Positions 1-52,745 of a stretch of DNA of 64,000 nucleotides are shown here, one piece after another; the first letter of the stretch is position 1, and each line of letters opens with the position of its first letter. A program made the translations under genes and the position numbers. The notes below the pieces were generated by a model, which worked only from the letters and a program-made list of their open reading frames with translations, was not told where the DNA came from and ran no database searches. This DNA comes from Tetrahymena thermophila SB210 (lineage: Eukaryota; Ciliophora; Oligohymenophorea; Hymenostomatida; Tetrahymenidae). The stretch lies in contig NW_002476348.1 of the NCBI RefSeq assembly GCF_000189635.1, positions 248,001 to 312,000 on the forward strand, read 5' to 3'.

Positions 1-3000
1 AAGATTAATTAATAATAAAAACTAAAGTTGAAAATAAAATGGTGAGTTAAATTAACAAAGAAAGAACAAAAAAAAAGCAAGCACAATAAAAAGAAAAAGT
101 AAAAAGAGCTTTATTGTTTTAAATTAGTTTTTATAATTAAAAATATCACATTCCAAATCAAATAAATTGTTTTTACCGAAGGTTAAGTGTCAAATTTGAG
201 AGATTAATGCACTTTGTTAAAACAAAACCTAAGCCTGATACACCTTTGTTACCAATTTAATTGAAACTTATTAAATATAGAAGTAAAAATATATCATAAA
301 ATAGTTAATTAGAAGGAAAAAATGAAGAAAAAATATGAAATAATAAGATTAATTAATAATAAAAGCAAAATTTGATAATTAAATGATGATTTAAATTAGC
401 AAAGAAAGAATAAAAAAAGCAAGCACAATAAAAAGAAAAGGAAATAAGAGCTTTATTGTTTTAAATTAGTTTTTATAATTTAAAATATCACAATCCAAAA
501 GAAATAAACTATTTTTACCGAAGTTTAACTGTCAAATATGAGAGATTAATGCAATTTGCTAAACCAGAGCCTAAGTCTGATGCTCCAATTGCATCAATTT
601 TATTGCCACTTTTTAAATATTGATGAAAAAAAAATATCATTAAATATTATTAGAAGGAATAAAAGAAGAAAAAATATCAAATAATAAGATTAATTAATAA
701 TAAAAGCAAAAGTTAAAAATAAAATAATGAGTTAAAAAAACAAAGAAAAAACAAAAAAAACAAGCATAATAAAAAGAAAAAGAAAAAAGAGCTTTATTCT
801 TTTAAATTAGTTTTTATAATTAAATATTTCACAATCCAAATCAAAAAAACTGTTTTTACCGAAGATTAAGTGCCAAATTTGAGAGATTAATGCAATTTGC
901 TAAAGCATAACCTAAGCCTGATGCACCTTTGTCACCAATTTAATTGCCACTTTTTAAATATTAAAAAAAATATATATCATTAAATAGTTAATTGAATGTA
1001 AAAATGAAGAAAAAATATGAAATCATAAGATTAATTAATAATAAAAGTAAAAGTTGAAAATAAAATGATGAGTTAAATTAACAAAGAAAGCACAATAAAA
1101 AGAAAAAGAAAAAAGAGCTTTAAATTAAAAATATCTAAATCCAAATCAAATAAGCTATTGTTACTTAAGGTTAAGTGTCAAATTTGAGAGATTAATGCAA
1201 TTTACTAAGGCAAAACCTAAGCCTGATGCACCTTTGTCACTAATTAAATTGCAACTTTTTAAATATTGAAGAAAAAATATATCATTAAATTGTTAATTAG
1301 AAGGAAGAAATGAAGAAAAAATAAGAAATAATAAGATTAATTAATAATAAAAGAAAAAGTTGAAAATAAAATGATGAGTTAAATTAGCAAAGAAAGAACA
1401 AAAAAAAGCAAGCACAATTAAAAGAAAAAGAAAAAAGAGCTTTATTGTTTTAAATTAGTTATTGTAATTAAAAATATCACAATCCAAAGCAAACAAACCA
1501 TTTATGCCTAAGTTCAAGTGTCAAATTTAAGAGATTAATGCACTTTGCTAAACCAGAACCTAACCCTAATGCGCCTTCGTCACAAATTTTATTGTAACTT
1601 TTTAAATATTCAAGAAAAAATATATCAGTAAATAGTTAATTAGAAGGAAAAATGAAGAAAAAATATGAAAAGAACAAAAAACAAGCAAGCACAATAAAAA
1701 GAAAAAGAGCTTTATTGTTTTAAATTAGTTTTTATAATTAAAAATATCAATATCCAAAACAAATAAACAGTTTTTACCTAAGGTTAAGTGTCAAATTTGA
1801 GAGATTAATGCACTTTGCTAAACCAGAACCTAACCCTGATGCGCCTTCGTCACCAATTTAATTGTAACTTTTTAAATATTGAAGAAAAAATATATCATTA
1901 AATAGTTAATTAGAAGGAAAAATGAAGAAAAAAAAAAACAAAAAACAAGCAAGCACAATAAAAAGAAAAAAGAGATTTATTGTTTTAAATTAGTTTTTAT
2001 AATTAAAAATATCACTATCCAAAATAAATAAACAGTTTTTACCTAAGGTTAAGTGTCAAATTTGAGAGATTAATGTAATTTGCTAAGGCAAAACCTAAGC
2101 CTGATGCACCTTTGTCACCAATTTAATTGTATCTTTTTAAATATTGAAGAAAAAATATATCATTAAATAGTTAATTGAAGGAAAAAATGAAGAAAAAATA
2201 TGAAATAATAAGATTAATTAATAATAAAAGCAAAAATTGAAAATAAAATGATGAGTTAAATTAACAAAAAAAGAAGGGAAAAAAAAGTAAGCATAATAAA
2301 AAGAAAACGAAAAAAGAGCTTTATTGTTTTAAATTAGTTTTTATAATTAAAAATATCACAATCTAAATCAAATAGACTATTTTTACCTTAGATCAAGTGT
2401 CAAATTTGAGAGATTAATGCTTACTAAAGCATAACCTAAGCCTAATGCACCTTCGTCACCAATTTAATTGAAACTTTTTAAATATTGAAGAAAAATAATA
2501 TCATTAAATAGTTAATTAAAAGGAAAAAATGATGAAAAAATATGAAATAATAAGATAAATTAATAATAAAAGCAAAAGTTTAAAATTAAATGACGAGTTA
2601 AATTAGTAAAGAAAGAACAAAAAAAAAGCAAGCGCAATAAAAAGAAAAAGAAAAAAGAGCTTTATTGTTTTAAATTAGTTTTTATAATTAAAAATATCAC
2701 AATCCAAAACAAATAAACTGTTTTTTACCAAAGGTTAAGTGTCAAATTTGAGAGATTAATGCAATTTGCTAAAGCACAACCTAAGCCTGATACATCTTGG
2801 TCACAAATTTGATTGCCACTTTTTAAATATTGAAGAAAAAATATAACATTAAATAGTTAATTGAAGGAAAAAATTAAAGAAAAAAATATCAAATAATAAA
2901 AAATGAATAATAAATAATTAAAAATAGAATTGAAAATTAAGTTAAAATAGCTAAAAATTTTTAATAAAAATCAATGAATAATGATGATAATTTCTTTAAC

Positions 3001-3234
3001 AAAAATTATTTATTTAAATAAAATGAAAGTTAAATATATAAAAATATTAATATTAATAAAAAAAATATATATAAATAAATTATACTTGAAATCAATATGG
3101 AGAATCTAGTGAGATAAAAGTGAAGAGCTTAAAAACTTTTTTTATTAATTTATATAAATTTAAAGGATATTAATAAAAATATTAATAATTACTTCTTATA
3201 ATCCGTTGTAATGTTTAATCTATTATATTATCAT
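1..3234 (-). CDS. LRR (RNI-like) protein, one LRR per exon, 5' part; runs off the left edge
   Basis: Read on the minus strand with TAA/TAG as Gln. The first exon (3234-3086, ATG at 3234-3232) gives MIIQQIKHYN... and ends two bases into a codon. It is followed by nine LRR exons: 2818-2729, 2473-2387, 2132-2043, 1867-1778, 1597-1508, 1254-1165, 949-860, 608-519 and 266-177. All are 90 nt (30 residues) except 2473-2387 (87 nt). A typical repeat reads GNQIGDKGASGLGYALAN then CINLSNLTLNLR, the ribonuclease-inhibitor-like LRR pattern known from large ciliate families. Donors are G/GTAAAAA-like and acceptors AAAAAG/T. Introns are 174-268 nt and are themselves repeated. No stop is seen, so the gene continues leftwards. 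Such LRRs usually bind proteins; no specific partner can be inferred. A paralogue lies at 59286-62980. Confidence 0.82.
100..2900 (-). repeat. Tandem exon+intron units of about 340 bp (nine copies)
   Basis: Exon right boundaries lie at 177, 519, 860, 1165, 1508, 1778, 2043, 2387 and 2729, giving periods of 342, 341, 305, 343, 270, 265, 344 and 342 bp. The similarity covers the intron as well as the coding part: the blocks AAGATTAATTAATAATAAAA and AGAGCTTTATTGTTTTAAAT recur in nearly every unit. The two short units near 1600-2000 lack part of the intron. This looks like recent unequal exchange inside one gene. Confidence 0.85.
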
Positions 3235-24236: not shown

Positions 24237-25250
24237 TTAAACAAAAATTTACATTAAATATTTGAATTATATTAATAATAAACTAAGATACAGTATTTAT
24301 ATGTATTTTTCATTTTACAATATTCTTAAAGTTTTATAGATTAATTAAAGTAAAATATTATTAGTTGATAAAATATTAATTTTTTTGATGCTTTTTTTAG
24401 TTATAATAAACAGTTTAATTGCTTTTTGAATTTTTAAATAAAGAATATTTTTTTAAAATTTATATATTAGTATGGATTTTTAAATATTGTTTATTAAACA
24501 TTTAAAGTAAATATTAAAAGAAAATAATATTTATTAGGTATTCATAAGTGTAAATGATATTATGAAATATAGTTAAATGCCTTTAAAGTCTAGTGACATT
24601 TATTAAAAGTAAACGATAGGGGGAGTGACATAAAGAGAAATATATTCAAAAATGAATGAAAGTGAGTATATGCATCCCCGCCAAACTATATATTTTATTA
24701 TAAAGCTTTATTTTATTTTGAAATCAAAATATTTAGAGGGGGATTTCTTATTGGTGGAATTTAAATAGCTACAATTTTCAGGGTGATAAAAATGAAATTC
24801 TCTTATTGATTTAAGTTTTGCAATTAAATTTGTTAAGCTTGTTAATCTTTGCTTTGTTCATTAGTTTAAGCTTGTTATTAAGGCTCTGATTGATTTAAGT
24901 TTTACAATTAAATTTGTTAAGCTTATTAATATTTGCTTTATTCATTTGTTTAAACTTGCTATTAAGGCTTTAATTATTATTAAAATTCCTATTAATTTAA
25001 ATTTTAAACTTATAGATCCTTTTTCCCATTTAAATAAAGCTAAAATGACTCTTCTTATTAATTATTTTTACTGGCTTGAATAATAAAAAAATAGAATATC
25101 TAAAAGTCAAATTTGTCATCATTAAAGTAAGTTTCTTTCTGTATTTTAATTAACCTACTTCACTTTAAATTATTATTTTTCTTTCATGAAAATAATAAAT
25201 AATAAATAATTAACTAAAAATACATATAAAAAAATTATTCTTATTAAAAA
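24237..25250. other. Intergenic region with an unusual inserted segment
   Basis: 24560-25060 is not found in other intergenic spacers. It contains G-runs (GATAGGGGGAGTGAC near 24616, GAGGGGGATTTC near 24736), the string GCATCCCCGCCAAAC near 24671, and an ~80-bp direct repeat at 24809-24970. The protease 5' flank normally expected here is missing except for the last ~180 bp. No coding exon recognised. Confidence 0.5.
24809..24970. repeat. About 80-bp tandem duplication
   Basis: TGATTTAAGTTTTGCAATTA begins a segment at 24809 that is repeated from 24890 with about ten substitutions; both copies contain AAATTTGTTAAGCTT and end in TATTAAGGCT. Confidence 0.8.
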
Positions 25251-26252
25251 TTAATTCTAAGTTGAGTATTGCTTTGCTTATGCCTCTTTATTTAGCTTAA
25301 GATGTCTCTATTGAAAAACTCCTATCTTACAATGAGTGGTCAAGCTAAAATTTAAGAACCTTCTTGAGCGATGAAGAAAAGCTATTTAGACTATTAGTCT
25401 TCTTTGAGAACTTACAAAAGGTCAAAAAATCGTAATAGCCAAGACCATCACACTTACTCACTTGCTTTAAACTAATTTTCTGATATGACTGAAGAGGAGT
25501 TTGCTGAAGTTCTTAAGAAATCTCATGTTGTTGATCTTCAAATTTAATAAGCTAACAGTAATAACTCAACATCTTCTACTACTGGAGGATCCACTTCATC
25601 TAATTCTACAAGCAACAATGCAACAGTTACAGTATACTGGAGAATTAAAGGTGCTGTAACTTCTGTTAAAAACTAAGGTACATGTGGCTCTTGCTGGGCA
25701 TTCTTTGCAGCTGGTTTAATGGAATCTTTTAATTTGATTAAGAATAAAAATTTAACAGATTTTTCTGAATAGTAACTTGTTGATTGTGTCAACTCTGCAA
25801 ATGGTTACGGTTCTAAAGGATGTAATGGAGGATGGCCTGCAGGATGCTTGGATTATTCCTCAAATTTTGGTATCACAACCTTAAAAAGCTATCCTTATGT
25901 TGATGTTTAAAAGAAGTGTAATATTACTGGAACTAACAAAGGTTTTAAGCCTAAATTTTGGAAGCAAATTCCTAATACTTCTAAGGACTTATAAAATGCT
26001 TTAAATTTCTCACCAGTTTCTGTTATTGTTGATGCTTCTTCTTGGTCTCAATATAGATTTGGTGTCTAAAATGGTTGCAACTAAATCAATATTTAACTTA
26101 ATCATGCTGTGGTAGCTGTTGGTTACGATTCCGCTGGTAACTAGATTTTTAAAAACTCTTGGAGTACTGTTTAGGGTGAGCAAGGTTATATTAGACTTGC
26201 TCCTAATAATATTTGTGGTATTTTAAGCTATAATTACTAAATTACAGCTTGA
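25251..26252 (+). pseudogene. Decayed papain-family protease, copy 7
   Basis: Full-length homology to the active copies, but the start codon is changed to TTA, about ten bases of the signal-peptide region are deleted, and one extra base in the prodomain (near 25425, before the AATAGCCAAGACC string) shifts the frame. The mature region still shows [15 protein letters not shown] and KNSW, but strongly conserved residues are altered: the VDW at the mature N-terminus is VYW, the W of GNWIVKNSW is Gln, and WGTGWG is WSTVQG. Most of its promoter block is also missing. It looks like a copy drifting after losing its promoter. Confidence 0.85.
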
Positions 26253-40999: not shown

Positions 41000-43900
41000 A
41001 TGTGTACTATTGAAAAATTAGTTACTCTAACTTATAGTACTAATGATCTCTCAACTACAGTGTAGATTTGTTATTCATTTCAGCTCATAATTTAGCATTA
41101 ATTTTGTTTATTTTTATTTAAAAGGTCAAATTCAATGTAATCTTTGAGAGATACGATGAATTTTACTACCAAATCTATTCTTAAAAATAAATGTAATTAT
41201 TTTCCTCCTTTTTTATGTATTTATTTTGCATTTAACTTAAAAAATTCTGTTGTCAGAAACATATGTCGTTAAATTTGCTAAATTGTTATTTAAAATTTAA
41301 CTAATAAGTGAGTGCGAAGAAAGGAGGTGAAATAAAATCTTCTATTGAGCTTGAGTACACTTAACTTAACTATGATGAGAATTTTAGAGCTCATGGTGCA
41401 AAAATATTTGAGATATTGAAAAATAATCCTTATTTAAATGAAAAATACGCAAACTTTGAATTTATAGCAGCAGGAGGTTTTGGTTTGGTTTTTAAGGCTA
41501 AAAAGAAAGTTAATAACAATAAACCAAACAAAATTTATGAAGAGAGAGAATTAGCTAAATATATTGCCTTTAAATTTATGCTTAATGACTTAAATGCAAA
41601 AAGAGAGATTGCAATCATGAAAAAGCTATTTTAGATGAGCACAAAACTGTTAATGGCAAGAAATATACAAGTATTTAGGAGATATGAAATAGTTACTAAG
41701 GAGAATGGGACTAATTAAAATGCTTGTAGGATTATAAACAGTGATAGCTTTTTTGAAAATAGTCCTAAATTGGTTTAGTCAGCTTCGGAAGGCACAAAAG
41801 ACAAAATACCCTATGTTATGGTAGAAATGAGCAAGGCTACATTTTCAGTAGATGCTGCTATTTCATATAGAAAAAAGAATAAAAAGCCTTATTTTATTTA
41901 TGAAATAAATAAAATCATCAGTAACGTTTTAGAATGTTTGTTCATTATGCATATTTAAGGTATTGCTCATTTAGATGTTAAGCCACAAAATATCCTATTT
42001 GTAGATGAATTAAATAGGTAATCAATCAATCAATCAATTTTAATTTCAAGTTTACACTTTTTTGTTTATTAATAAGTAATCCCTTTTCTATTCTAATTAT
42101 TTAGATATACGTTAGCTGATTTTGGGTGCAGCCTAGAATTAAATTCAATTGATTTCGAAAATTATTAGCTAGCTACTGAAGAAATTGTTGGGTTTACTCC
42201 TTAGTATACAGATCCAAATATTCTAGAAAAAGAATTTTTTAATCCTTTCAAAGCTGACATTTGGAGTGTTGGTGTCATTCTGCTTGAGCTTCTTTCAGTT
42301 GGATAAGATTTTGATTTAGTATAAATTTTAAAAACATGTAAGAGCAGTCAAGATGTTGAAGAGAAAATATTCAAAAAATATATCTTTAATAGTAATGGTG
42401 AGATGATTTACTGTCCTATGTTAAAAAACTTTGTTGAAATTGACAACTAATTAAAGATGTACTTATAATGGGATGAGAATCAGAGATGGAACATCATAGA
42501 AATTTTAATAGAAATATAAAATAGTATCTTAGTTTAGCCATTTTATATCCCCTTTAACAATTCTATCACAACTAAAAAGTTATTCTCCTTTTTGTCAGAT
42601 GAATAACCCCATTAGTAATCATCTCCTCTTATTTAACAAGAAGGATAAAATAATTCAAAAATTAATGAAAAAGAATGTCCTTACCTTAAGAGGTAGCAAT
42701 AAATTCAGCAATAAAATTACTTTCTTTCAGAATGTGAGCTTGTATAAGGATGGAAATACAGGGGTTTTGTTTGGTCTAATTATAATTTACAATAAACAGG
42801 ATTATACTTTTCTTAAAAAAATATACTTAAAAATGGAAAGGGAACCATTTCTAATATGCAAAATAGGCTTGTATTTTAAGGTAATTTTGATCGAGATTTA
42901 CCAATCGGAAAGGGTACATATGTTTTGAGTAATTTTTGTGACAGAAAAGCTTAATTCACAGGTATACCGAGTATAGACTAGATACTGGTAAAACATGGAG
43001 ATTAATCACTTAATGATGTAGAAAAAATTGTTTATGAGGGAGAATTTGATAGTGGATAAATAAGTGGTGGATTAATTACATATACAAATACTGATAAAGG
43101 TACAACTTATCTATTAAACAGATCCTTTAGATGTAAAGAAGTGGTAAAAAATTATCAAAAAGGAAAGATTGTTTCTGTTTTAGATTTAAATTCCAAGCAT
43201 ATTTCAATAAATTTAAAATGCTTTAGATAAAGTATTTTTGATAAAATTTTTTATGTATCAACTAGAATATATCCATTTACAAATTATAAGTCTATAATAT
43301 TTAAATAAAATGATACAATCAGTAGTGTTATGCAAAAAATTAAGTCGAGAATAATAGATACAGATACCAAATTTATTTAAAGATTATAAACTGGAAATGG
43401 TTATAACTTTTATTTTGAGCAATCTGTAATCATTTATTCATATTTTTTAAGTATTTTTAATTACAAAGAAAAATTTGTCAAATAAACAATTATACAAGAC
43501 ACTACATCATAATATACAATATATGATATATTCTTACTTTTTGAGTAACAAGTTGTTGAGTAAATTATGAGTACCATGTAGTACATTAAGCGCATTAAGC
43601 AAAAAGGCAGAATTTCACATGATCAAATGTGTTTAAACGATTTCTATAAAAAGTACAAAGGGCTTCTTAATAATTTGGAGTAATTCTGTGATAATAGAGA
43701 TGTTGACTCGTAAAACTTCTAATAATTTGGATTAAATAAGTAAATTAAATCATTTGGCCTTAATTGCACTTCATATGTAACAGAAAAAGAACAACTAAAC
43801 ATCGATAAGAGAAAAGGTTATTTAATTTTTTATTTTTATAATTGCAGTCGTTTCTCATATATTAATTAATCCTCCATTTAATTAATATAAAAATCGAATT

Positions 43901-45595
43901 TATTTTTAAAATAAACATAATTTCTCAATATTTAAAATTTGGAAAAGGTATTTTGTTAAATTTATGGGACAATAATTTTTTAATATGGTTAAAAAATTAA
44001 AAGACGATTTTTTAGAAGTATTTGAGAATTTATGTTAATAGAAATTTTATATTAAATTTATTTTATTTTCTTTTTTTTATTTGTTTTAATTATTTTATAG
44101 TCGCTAATGACTAATAAGTTTTTGAATATTTGGAGCTTAAGAATATGAAAAGACTGGGAATGTAATTTGTAACTGATAATTACTTTGAGAAGTACCTAAA
44201 TAAAAGCTTTAATACGTTAGAATATTTAAATATTTCTTTTTATTCTAATGATGTTAAAGCAGACTTTTCTTGTTTAAAAAGTTTGTAAGTGCTTAGTAAA
44301 TTCAAGGTTTTTAAAGCTTCTCCATAATAGATTAAATAGATATTTGAAAATTTAAACTTAAAAAACTTAAAAACAATCCATCTTCAGAGATAATGTGAGT
44401 ATGATCAATCAGCTATAGATACTATTTCCTAACAAGATTATTCTTTTGTCTAAAACTTTAAATTTATAAACTATAACTCAAATTAAGGAAAATGGTTTGA
44501 ATGTATAATAAATAGAAATAATTCTTTTAGAAACTTAAAAAAGCTCTGTGTAAAAACATGTAATTTACTTCAAAAATTTCAATAAGATATTCTTTATAAA
44601 TTAAACAATTTTAACTAAATAAATATTAAAAAGATATTTCAAAACTCAGCTGTACCTTAATTTCACAGAAGCTAAAAAACATAGAAACTCTTAAACTTTG
44701 CTACTGCTAGATCAACGATGAATCAATCTCAGAGCTAAAGTAACTATTTAAAGTTACTTCTTTAAACTTAAGTTCAAATGAAATCACAGACGAAGGAACA
44801 AAATATTTGTTTGAAAATATGCCTAACGTTAAAAACTTAAAATTGAATGGTAGCTAAAATATAAGTTTTAAAGGGCTTTATTTGCTATCATCTAATATGA
44901 AGCATTTAGAGGAGATTGAGTTTAAAAATAATCTCCCTCACTTCAATTATTTTTAATTCCATACAGAAAAATGCAAGAAGTCTCTTTTGCAAGAAAAGGA
45001 AAAATCTGGAGGAATAGCCTTTATTGAATCTTTGTATGAGCTAAAGAATTTACAGAACTTGAGATTGGCTTAAATGTATGAAGAATGCTTCTACGGAGAA
45101 AATCATTTCGTAAGGAATAAGCCATACAGTCCAGAATTTATTAAAAGTCTGGCAGTGCTTAGACTAAATGAATTGGATTTAAGTGATATTTAAGAAGATT
45201 ATTTAAGGCATTTTTTGTTAGCAAAGGGAGTTTCAAATGCCAACAAATTAGTTCTTAATCCCAAAATTAATTAAATATCTGATGAAATAGCTTTGGCTTT
45301 AATTAGTGGAAGCTTTAATCAGCTCTAACATCTCTCTCTGTCTAATTGCTACAATTTATCATCTAAAACCATACAAGTTTTACTATAAAATAGAGATATA
45401 TAAAAAACTATCAAAGAGCTTTATCTTAACAATACGGAATTTGATGATGATTGCTCCGATTATTTAATAAACTTTTTACACCTTTTTCCTAAATTAGAGA
45501 TTCTCTCAGTTAAAAATTGTATTGATATCTCGGAGGCTTCGTTATAAAAGCTACAGAAAAAATTACAATAAAACAAAATATCTCTCATTTACTGA
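41000..45595 (+). CDS. Protein kinase + MORN + LRR multidomain protein
   Basis: Likely exons: 41000-41059, 41125-42017, 42105-43816 and 44101-45595, TGA at 45593. 41125-41263 is in frame with the kinase, so either the ATG at 41000 (spliced) or that at 41263 may start; a further small intron near 41187-41305 is possible. Kinase motifs: G-loop AAGGFGLVFKAK, Lys in IAFKFM, catalytic loop HLDVKPQN (HRD changed to HLD), DFG in LADFGCSLE, and DIWSVGVILLEL. Then come MORN-like units (FQGNFDRDLPIGKGTYVLSN, YEGEFDSGQISGGLITYT), then LRRs (FKVTSLNLSSNEITDEGTKY, LQHLSLSNCYNLSS). Near 44652-44668 the LRR frame changes by 17 nt with GT...AG ends (see findings). A signalling kinase tethered through MORN and LRR modules is likely; the substrate is unknown. 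Confidence 0.82.
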
Positions 45596-50747: not shown

Positions 50748-52745
50748 ATGAATAAAAAATATCTTGCTTTACTTGCTGCTTTCAGTTTACTGTAGCTAGT
50801 CGCAGCCGGTGATTGTCCTCTCTGTACATACAGCGCTAATGGAGAAGATTCTCCTGATGCTTGTTAATCCTGTCCTGCTGGTAAATGCACACCTAGTGTA
50901 AAAACTAGTAGTACAGACGATACATAATGTACTGTTAATACTAAAGAATGCGATGTAGGTAAATTCAGCTCAACAGGATATGATACAGATGGGCTTGGAG
51001 CAAATTGTGATGTTTGTGCACTTGGAACTACTAATAATACAAAAGGTTCAAAATCCTGTCCTATCACCTTACAAAAATGTCCTAAAGGAAAATACAGCGC
51101 AACCGGATATGATTCAGATGGAGCAGGAGCAGGTTGTACCAATTGTTCACCTGGAACTACTACCAGTTCAGAAGGTTAAACCACCTGTTCATGTCCTAAA
51201 GGAAAATACAGCGGAACCGGATATGATTCAGATGGAACAGGAGCAGGTTGTACCGATTGTTCACCTGGAACTACTACCAGTTCAGATGGTTAAACCGCCT
51301 GTTCTGTTACCTTACATAAATGTCCTAAAGGAAAATACAGTGCAACAGGATATGATTCAGATGGAACAGGAGCAGGTTGTACCGATTGTTCACCTGGAAC
51401 TACTACCAGTTCAGATGGTTAAACCACCTGTTCATGTCCTAAAGGAAAATACAGTGCAACAGGATATGATTCAGATGGAACAGGAGCAGGTTGTACCGAT
51501 TGTTCACCTGGAACTACTACCAGTTCAGATGGTTAAACCACCTGTTCATGTCCTAAAGGAAAATACAGCGGAACCGGATATGATTCAGATGGAACAGGAG
51601 CAGGTTGTACCGATTGTTCACCTGGAACTACTACCAGTTCAGATGGTTAAACCGCCTGTTCTGTTACCTTACATAAATGTCCTAAAGGAAAATACAGTGC
51701 AACAGGATATGATTCAGATGGAACAGGAGCAGGTTGTACCGATTGTTCACCTGGAACTACTACCAGTTCAGATGGTTAAACCGCCTGTTCTGTTACCTTA
51801 CATAAATGTCCTAAAGGAAAATACAGTGCAACAGGATATGATTCAGATGGAACAGGAGCAGGTTGTACCGATTGTTCACCTGGAACTACTACCAGTTCAG
51901 ATGGTTAAACCACCTGTTCATGTCCTAAAGGAAAATACAGCGGAACCGGATATGATTCAGATGGAACAGGAGCAGGTTGTACCGATTGTTCACCTGGAAC
52001 TACTACCAGTTCAGATGGTTAAACCGCCTGTTCTGTTACCTTACATAAATGTCCTAAAGGAAAATACAGTGCAACAGGATATGATTCAGATGGAACAGGA
52101 GCAGGTTGTACCGATTGTTCACCTGGAACTACTACCAGTTCAGATGGTTAAACCACCTGTTCTATTACCTTACAAAGATGTCCTAAAGGAAAATACAGCG
52201 CAACCGGATATGATTCAGATGGAGCAGGAGCAGATTGTACCAATTGTTCACCTGGAACTACTAATAATGCAGATGGCTAAACTTCCTGTCCTATAGTGTT
52301 ATAAGGATGTCCTTAAGGGTCTTATAGTTTATCAGGATTTGATAATGATGGACTAGGAGGAGGTTGTACTCCATGTACTGTTGGTACATCAACACCTTCA
52401 AGCTAAACTAAATCAAGTGATAATTCAAAATGTACTGTCACATTAACTAAATGTCCTGCTGGAACTATCAGTACAACAGGTTACGATACAGATGGAAGTG
52501 GTAGCGGTTGTAATTAATGCAGCAAAAACACATATTCTTCAATTGGTGACACTACTTGCACACCTTGTCCTACAGATCGTGTTTCTTCACCAGGTTCTAA
52601 GTCAGCTAGTGACTGCGTTTGCCCTAACAACTATGTTTAATCTACAGATGGAACTAAAGCTTGTATCTAAATTGATACAACAACTTACGAAAGAAATTTA
52701 GTTGCATCATCCATGATTTTACTGATATTCGCAATTATATTTTGA
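50748..52745 (+). CDS. Immobilization-antigen-like cysteine-rich surface protein (GPI-type)
   Basis: A single exon of 665 residues, TGA at 52743. Residues 1-20 (MNKKYLALLAAFSLLQLVAA) are a signal peptide. The body is a chain of Cys-rich repeats of 38 or 43 residues, each with CPKGKYSATGYDSDG, GAGCTDCSPGTTTSSDG and a closing QT.C. The last ~15 residues (LVASSMILLIFAIIF) are hydrophobic and end at the stop, as in GPI-anchored proteins. This matches the ciliate immobilization/surface antigens that coat the cell and cilia and are expressed one at a time. Many Gln and none of the Cys depend on reassigned stops. The neighbouring spacer is long on the left side, which would fit independent regulation, but no element is recognised. 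Confidence 0.92.
51078..52178 (+). repeat. Nine coding tandem repeats of 114 or 129 bp
   Basis: Units start at TGTCCTAAAGG at 51078, 51192, 51321, 51435, 51549, 51678, 51807, 51921 and 52050; their lengths run 114, 129, 114, 114, 129, 129, 114, 129, 129. The two types differ by a 15-bp insert in the linker (TCATGT versus TCTGTTACCTTACATAAATGT). Copies are almost identical at the DNA level, with only GCGGAACC/GTGCAACA alternations; units before 51078 and after 52178 are diverged. Confidence 0.93.

What the first reader, a model, noticed from the sequence alone, without database searches (positions are those of the whole stretch)
1..3234. LRR gene growing by tandem copying of whole exon+intron units
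Each 30-residue LRR is exactly one exion-sized 90-nt exon and the unit of repetition (about 340 bp) includes the intron. Intron sequence is as similar between units as exon sequence, which implies very recent expansion or ongoing homogenisation. All introns split the codon after base two, so any unit can be gained or lost without changing frame. That makes LRR number a freely evolvable trait and predicts copy-number polymorphism.
Basis: partly seen in the sequence, partly recalled or inferred. Interest (0 to 1): 0.75.

Follow-up and report, generated by a model that had tools for sequence, protein, structure and literature searches.

The report
Ciliate LRR gene with hypervariable binding strip
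This Tetrahymena gene is built from tandem exon-plus-intron copies, as already published for its family, but across the family the repeats are nearly random at the few residues predicted to face a binding partner while everything around them stays almost identical, which points to selection for a diverse set of recognition proteins.

Summary
The architecture is real but already published. The window lies in what I take to be Tetrahymena thermophila, and 1-3234 is most of a minus-strand gene: two short 5' exons, 11 LRR exons (9 in the window; 8 of those 9 are exactly 90 nt) and a terminal exon, 378 aa, one final TGA. Every intron bordering an LRR exon is phase 2. This is the 90-bp-exon LRR family of Xiong et al. 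2019 (PMC6564038), which already reports variable exon number and proposes unequal crossing over.

Introns are more alike than exons: over 256 units from 37 loci, mean diversity is 0.076 in introns and 0.153 in exons. The excess sits in a few codons, chiefly residues 28, 30 and 1, exposed positions of LxLxxN. Their first two bases differ in 59% of comparisons, against 7% at four-fold sites. Among pairs differing at only 1-2 of about 286 surrounding bases these codons are already near random, a roughly 100-fold excess.

Best reading: strong diversifying selection on a recognition surface, over a scaffold kept alike by ectopic exchange. Function is inferred. Nine literature searches found no report of this pattern.

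The parts
3193..3234 (-). exon 1, ATG, 42 nt (MIIQQIKHYNGLQE); phase-0 intron follows
   Evidence: the short-exon model fits 24 of 31 flank rows, this gene included
3086..3105 (-). exon 2, 20 nt, ends the N-terminal half-LRR; phase-2 intron follows
2729..2818 (-). LRR exon 1, 90 nt
2387..2473 (-). LRR exon 2, 87 nt (one codon shorter, still in frame)
2043..2132 (-). LRR exon 3, 90 nt
1778..1867 (-). LRR exon 4, 90 nt
1508..1597 (-). LRR exon 5, 90 nt; donor reads GC instead of GT
1165..1254 (-). LRR exon 6, 90 nt
860..949 (-). LRR exon 7, 90 nt
519..608 (-). LRR exon 8, 90 nt
177..266 (-). LRR exon 9, 90 nt; two further LRR exons (contig C188:247833-247922 and 247493-247582) and the terminal exon (C188:247002-247089, TGA) lie left of the window
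2926..3231 (-). 5' block shared by paralogues (best match per flank 76-89% identical): short exons 1 and 2, the 87-nt intron and part of the next intron

Best explanation
A complete member of the young T. thermophila 90-bp-exon LRR family. It encodes a small protein (378 aa) made almost only of ribonuclease-inhibitor-like LRRs. SHOWN (by sequence): one exon per LRR; phase-2 introns; unit number differing between paralogues and near-identical unit pairs at various spacings; introns, four-fold sites and exon scaffold about 93% alike among units; codons 28, 30 and 1 (with 26, 3, 6, 7 and 15 to a lesser degree) about 8-fold more diverse than introns and four-fold sites on average and about 100-fold in the closest pairs; hypervariable residues rich in Y, G, S, R, D, N, E. 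INFERRED: unequal crossing over and gene conversion within and between arrays keep the scaffold and introns alike, while strong diversifying selection on the concave face changes the exposed residues after each duplication. The phase-2 intron cuts the beta-strand inside codon 30, so every crossover in an intron joins residues 28 and 30 of one unit to residue 1 of another without a frameshift. The product is a germline-encoded repertoire of recognition proteins, for bacteria, food, toxins or self.
For: Gene model. LRR_6 in Pfam (E 4e-30). Register LxLxxNxI from alignment to solved LRR proteins. Diversity: intron 0.076; 14 four-fold sites mean 0.070 (0.008-0.169); exon outside eight variable codons 0.063; first two bases of codons 1/28/30 0.593; bootstrap over loci gives hv/intron 7.0-8.9; of 253 intron columns none exceeds 0.5 and 10 exceed 0.3. 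Split halves of the loci give the same nine top codons. In 49 pairs (27 units, 13 loci) with 1-2 differences in about 286 nt, hv differs at 0.561 per nt, ratio about 105. The four-fold sites of Leu27 and Leu29, on either side of codon 28, stay at 0.016 and 0.079. Codon 30 is independent of the next unit's codon 1 (z 0.2). Y/G/S/R/D/N/E/W/H (a set chosen after seeing the data) make up 79-89% of hv residues, against 28% expected from intron base composition. The short 5' exons repeat the pattern beside an intron of mean diversity 0.062. Ne about 1.1e8 and mutation rate 7.6e-12 (PMC5585995, abstract and passages) make very weak selection sufficient (my inference).
Against: No expression, binding or population data. 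The gene-level Ka/Ks in Xiong et al. indicates purifying selection. The hv codons were picked from the same data; the split halves only partly answer that. Close pairs share units and are not independent, choosing the closest pairs inflates the ratio, and that test set aside 15 bases of moderately variable codons. In the window gene alone hv diversity is lower (0.37 over 8 nt, against 0.097 for the rest of the exon and 0.087 for introns), and among its 5 units that passed the filters codon 28 is not among the nine most variable codons. Third bases inside hv codons vary too (e.g. GAC 47, GAT 45 at codon 28), more than selection on residues alone would require. Some linkage exists: codons 6 and 7 (36% of the maximum), 1 and 3 (16%), and neighbouring units resemble each other slightly at codons 28, 30, 1 and 15 (z 3.5-6.5).
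Confidence: 0.73

Rival explanations
1. Copy-number growth only: exons and introns diverge together after tandem duplication and there is no special diversification.
For: Unit number varies 4-20 among paralogues; 28 of 1502 within-locus pairs are at least 97% identical.
Against: Exon diversity is twice that of introns, with the excess in a few codons; near-identical flanks mostly carry near-random hv codons.
Confidence: 0.06
2. A dedicated, codon-targeted diversifying process (mutagenic copying, or gene conversion from a pool of variants) creates the variation, and selection only filters it.
For: hv codons are near saturation even when flanks differ by 1-2 of about 286 nt; third bases inside hv codons vary too; Xiong et al. 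report the LRR units beside a retrotransposon in the germline genome.
Against: Variation stops within 3 nt: the four-fold sites of Leu27 and Leu29 are at baseline. Blocks of conversion would link codons 28 and 30 (6 nt apart), but the excess mutual information is only 5% of the maximum. Introns, 27% A on the coding strand, do not vary likewise, so a simple adenine mutator is unlikely.
Confidence: 0.1
3. The units are old and the hv codons are merely unconstrained, while introns and scaffold are held by constraint or homogenisation.
For: hv diversity does not rise with flank divergence beyond the closest pairs, as at saturation.
Against: hv residues are far from neutral composition: G+C 38-45% over the three codons where introns have 16%, and polar/aromatic residues about 3-fold over expectation. 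Four-fold sites are as low as introns (0.070), so constraint would have to hold them too. Group III introns differ in length between species according to Xiong et al., which argues against long-term constraint.
Confidence: 0.11

Closest known systems
Tetrahymena group III 90-bp-exon LRR genes (Xiong et al. 2019, PMC6564038)
   Same: exactly 90-bp exons, phase-2 introns of about 257 bp, nucleotide-level repeat units, highly variable exon number, proposed unequal crossing over; the species matches
   Different: that paper reports conserved leucines and purifying selection overall; the words 'positive selection', 'hypervariable' and 'concave' have 0 occurrences in its main text
Highly variable plant NLR receptors (PMC8226289, abstract and passages seen)
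   Same: variable residues at the x positions of LxxLxLxx on the concave LRR face
   Different: no nucleotide-binding domain found here (Pfam finds two LRR models and one sub-cutoff hit); one exon per LRR; ciliate
Lamprey variable lymphocyte receptors (recalled, not read)
   Same: LRR modules with hypervariable concave positions
   Different: those are assembled somatically; here the diversity lies in assembled genome copies, and somatic assembly was not tested

Membership tests
Tetrahymena group III 90-bp-exon LRR genes | arrays of at least three consecutive exactly 90-bp exons | tested here: met
   nine consecutive 90-nt LRR exons follow the 87-nt one
Tetrahymena group III 90-bp-exon LRR genes | phase-2 introns around the 90-bp exons | tested here: met
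   12 of 13 introns phase 2, the exception being the first, between the two short exons
Tetrahymena group III 90-bp-exon LRR genes | introns near 257 bp (T. thermophila) | tested here: met
   family median 256; in this gene 7 of 10 introns between LRR exons are 250-255, the others 175, 180 and 215
Tetrahymena group III 90-bp-exon LRR genes | masked by one of the eight published consensus repeat sequences | tested here: inconclusive
Tetrahymena group III 90-bp-exon LRR genes | species-specific gene | not testable with these tools
   the genome search reports no relatives held
Leucine-rich repeat proteins, LRR_6 / ribonuclease-inhibitor-like | profile match over the curated cut-off | tested here: met
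   PF13516 101.8 bits against cut-off 23.4
Highly variable NLR immune receptors | nucleotide-binding domain | tested here: not met
   no such Pfam match in 378 aa
Highly variable NLR immune receptors | variable residues on the concave LRR face | tested here: met
   codons 26, 28, 30, 1 across the family; mapped by motif and alignment, not by a structure
Variable lymphocyte receptors | somatic assembly of LRR modules | not tested
   no germline (micronuclear) sequence here

The most novel reading that the evidence does not exclude
A unicellular eukaryote keeps a genome-wide recognition repertoire in which a dedicated process, not only selection, diversifies single LRR codons, and intron-mediated exchange inside the binding strand recombines them.
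Probability: 0.08. Interest if true: 0.92.

Novelty: new variant of a known kind. Interest (0 to 1): 0.6.

Why it matters
What the LRR genes of Tetrahymena do (1,874 in T. thermophila by Xiong et al.) is an open question; those authors could only suggest recognition of bacteria. A hypervariable strip at the predicted ligand-facing positions, measured against introns in the same units, is evidence that a binding surface is under diversifying selection, and it names the residues to test. It also gives the phase-2 intron a possible role: it cuts the binding strand in two, so exchange in the intron makes new combinations. If right, a free-living single cell holds a recognition repertoire with the surface logic of plant and lamprey LRR receptors. 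The array architecture itself is not new; the hypervariable pattern is the part I found no report of.

Tried and rejected
Rejected: a satellite or pseudogene array (1 of 329 exons has a stop in the coding frame; gene model with both ends). Telomeric repeats: no two-unit CCCCAA/TTGGGG in the 37 stretches fetched, so array ends at contig ends look like assembly breaks. Regional hypermutation (four-fold sites beside hv codons are at baseline). Assembly chimaeras as the cause of hv variation: hv codons 6 nt apart are nearly independent, which read-scale mis-joining should not produce. A genome search with the LRR_6 profile gave 2 matches (150 of 280 candidates scored) and was not used further.

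Not done: structure prediction (the tool takes proteins read letter for letter from the DNA; this one is spliced). Supplementary consensus sequences of the paper were not looked at (0 look-ups allowed).

Dropped before counts: of 353 units, 12 without AG/GT borders (one of them at a contig edge) and 12 not 90 nt; for the 256-unit set, also units whose next exon failed or whose intron was outside 200-300 nt, and intron columns with occupancy of 80% or less (422 to 253). The four-fold count uses only units with the commonest codon box at each site. The linkage test used 321 distinct exons of 329.

An earlier count said 25 of 31 flanks fit the 5' exon model; the right count is 24 of 31 rows, one of the misses being a second hit on the same flank.

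Full report
What the window is. The window is G000:C188:248001-312000 of a 101-Mb, 445-contig genome. A piece of a telomerase frame from that genome aligns to PDB chain 6d6v over 61 residues with one difference, at the edge of the aligned stretch. That this chain is T. thermophila is recalled. The median intron of the LRR family is 256 nt, and Xiong et al. give about 257 for T. thermophila and about 232 for its closest relative. I therefore take the genome to be T. thermophila, macronuclear.

The observation. Tandem units with periods of 341 and 265 bp lie between 1 and 2914. On the minus strand each unit carries one LRR exon. Comparing paralogous loci gave the gene's two ends. The 5' end is a pair of short exons (39-42 and 20 nt), fitting 24 of 31 flank rows, this gene included; together they leave phase 2, as the first LRR exon needs. 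The 3' end is an exon ending in TGA, read by eye from the aligned tails of 25 loci. For the window gene the 14-exon model gives one open frame of 378 aa from ATG at 3234 to a TGA left of the window. In the window 8 of 9 LRR exons are 90 nt and one is 87. One donor is GC. This copy lacks a decayed LRR remnant that most of the other aligned rows have between the 5' block and the first full LRR exon.

Already in print. Xiong et al. 2019 (PMC6564038; abstract, sections 9, 10, 13, 27, the first part of section 15, and passages) describe exactly 90-bp exons, extreme phase-2 bias, about 347-bp exon+intron units in T. thermophila, exon numbers from 1 to 51, scrambling among paralogues and unequal crossing over, and they suggest recognition roles. 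My counts agree: 18 loci with both ends hold 4-20 units (L030 merges two genes), and 28 of 1502 within-locus unit pairs are at least 97% identical, 13 of them neighbours.

The sample. A DNA search with 1-3234 scored 38 of 981 candidates in the genome. I fetched 37 stretches with the best-scoring arrays, so the data set is the window's closest kin, not a random sample of the family; a protein search later showed 6085 candidate exons, 150 of them scored.

Introns are not as similar as exons; they are more similar. In this array mean pairwise difference is 8.7% for introns and 14.5% for exons. Over 256 units of 37 loci it is 0.076 and 0.153. The excess is concentrated in codons 1, 28 and 30 (codon 30 is split by the phase-2 intron), with lesser peaks at 7, 6, 3, 15 and 26. 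Outside these eight codons the exon is at 0.063, 14 four-fold third positions average 0.070, and the first two bases of codons 1, 28 and 30 average 0.593. Bootstrapping loci gives a ratio of 7.0-8.9 to introns. Two random halves of the loci (149 and 107 units) have the same nine codons at the top. The short 5' exons, which are not part of the array, show the same contrast with their own 87-nt intron (mean 0.062, one or more columns up to 0.5; 23 loci, intron from 21).

How sharp it is. Codon 28 (0.65, 0.25, 0.57) and the two exon bases of codon 30 (0.74, 0.62) enclose codon 29 (0.09, 0.02, 0.08), and the first seven bases of the intron are at 0.00-0.05 (the eighth is at 0.27). Among 49 pairs with 1-2 differences over about 286 surrounding bases (27 units of 13 loci; 15 bases of moderately variable codons set aside) the eight hv bases differ at 0.561 per base, close to the 0.61 of distant pairs. 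Eight pairs had no difference at all in the surroundings; in three of them the hv bases were identical too, as expected of very fresh duplicates. The ratio of about 105 is inflated by picking the closest pairs, and the pairs share units; in the next class (3-5 differences, 210 pairs, 72 units) it is 37.

Position and chemistry. Alignment to solved LRR proteins sets the register L27-x28-L29-x30-x1-N2-x3-I4. In plant NLRs the variable positions of LxxLxLxx form the exposed array on the concave face (PMC8226289, passages; PMC3138743, passages). The hv residues are polar or aromatic (Y, G, S, R, D, N, E, W, H 79-89%, against 28% expected from intron base composition; the residue set was chosen after seeing the data).

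Mechanism. The scaffold and introns are alike within and between arrays (intron diversity 0.059 within loci and 0.077 between), which fits ectopic exchange. The hv codons escape this (0.512 within, 0.596 between). Linkage between them is weak even at 6 nt (codons 28 and 30: excess information 5% of the maximum; codons 1 and 3: 16%; only the adjacent codons 6 and 7 are strongly linked, 36%), and codon 30 is independent of codon 1 of the next unit. Independent changes at single codons, kept by selection, fit best. With Ne about 1.1e8 and 7.6e-12 mutations per site per division (PMC5585995), neutral divergence of 0.5% takes about 3e8 divisions (my arithmetic), so even very small advantages could saturate these codons meanwhile. 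A dedicated codon-targeted process is not excluded: third bases inside hv codons vary more than selection on residues alone demands. That selection, and not relaxed constraint, is at work rests on the residue composition and on three agreeing neutral references (introns, four-fold sites, 5' intron).

Limits. No RNA, no second strain or species, no structure, one subfamily. The window gene is a milder case than the family average (hv 0.37 over eight bases, against 0.097 for the rest of the exon), and in its five fully filtered units codon 28 is not among the nine most variable codons.

Literature. Ten searches were run; nine bear on this question (one search was for the mutation rate). None of the papers listed reports, by title and start of abstract, hypervariable or positively selected LRR residues in Tetrahymena; one search listed 15 of 79 papers and one search listed 5 of 6. 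Only open-licence papers are held, so this is not proof of absence. Four papers were opened (PMC6564038, PMC5585995, PMC8226289, PMC3138743), none in full.

Noticed in passing
window 5184-29804: Six of ten open frames scanned, all on the + strand, match papain-family cysteine proteases with I29 propeptide (starting 5184, 8680, 15411, 18066, 23049, 28749): a tandem cathepsin-like cluster beside the LRR gene.
   Followed up: partly
window 41047-45592: A protein-kinase frame (41047-44022) is followed by a frame with weak LRR matches, all below Pfam's cut-offs (44501-45592); possibly one kinase-LRR gene, or neighbours.
   Followed up: no
window 50957-52289: High-identity tandem repeat of 114/129/243 bp in a GC-richer region; no Pfam match in the frame 50752-52713.
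   Followed up: no
L023-L027, L031-L034, L036-L043, L045, L046: In 19 of the 37 fetched stretches the LRR array runs to or close to a contig end, without telomere repeats, so unit numbers there are lower bounds and the assembly seems to break at these arrays.
   Followed up: partly
rows other than the window gene: Most paralogues show a decayed end of an LRR exon in the intron before the first LRR exon; the window gene lacks it.
   Followed up: partly
window 24800-24995: An 84-bp direct repeat of about 2.3 copies inside an open frame without Pfam match (24781-25788).
   Followed up: no
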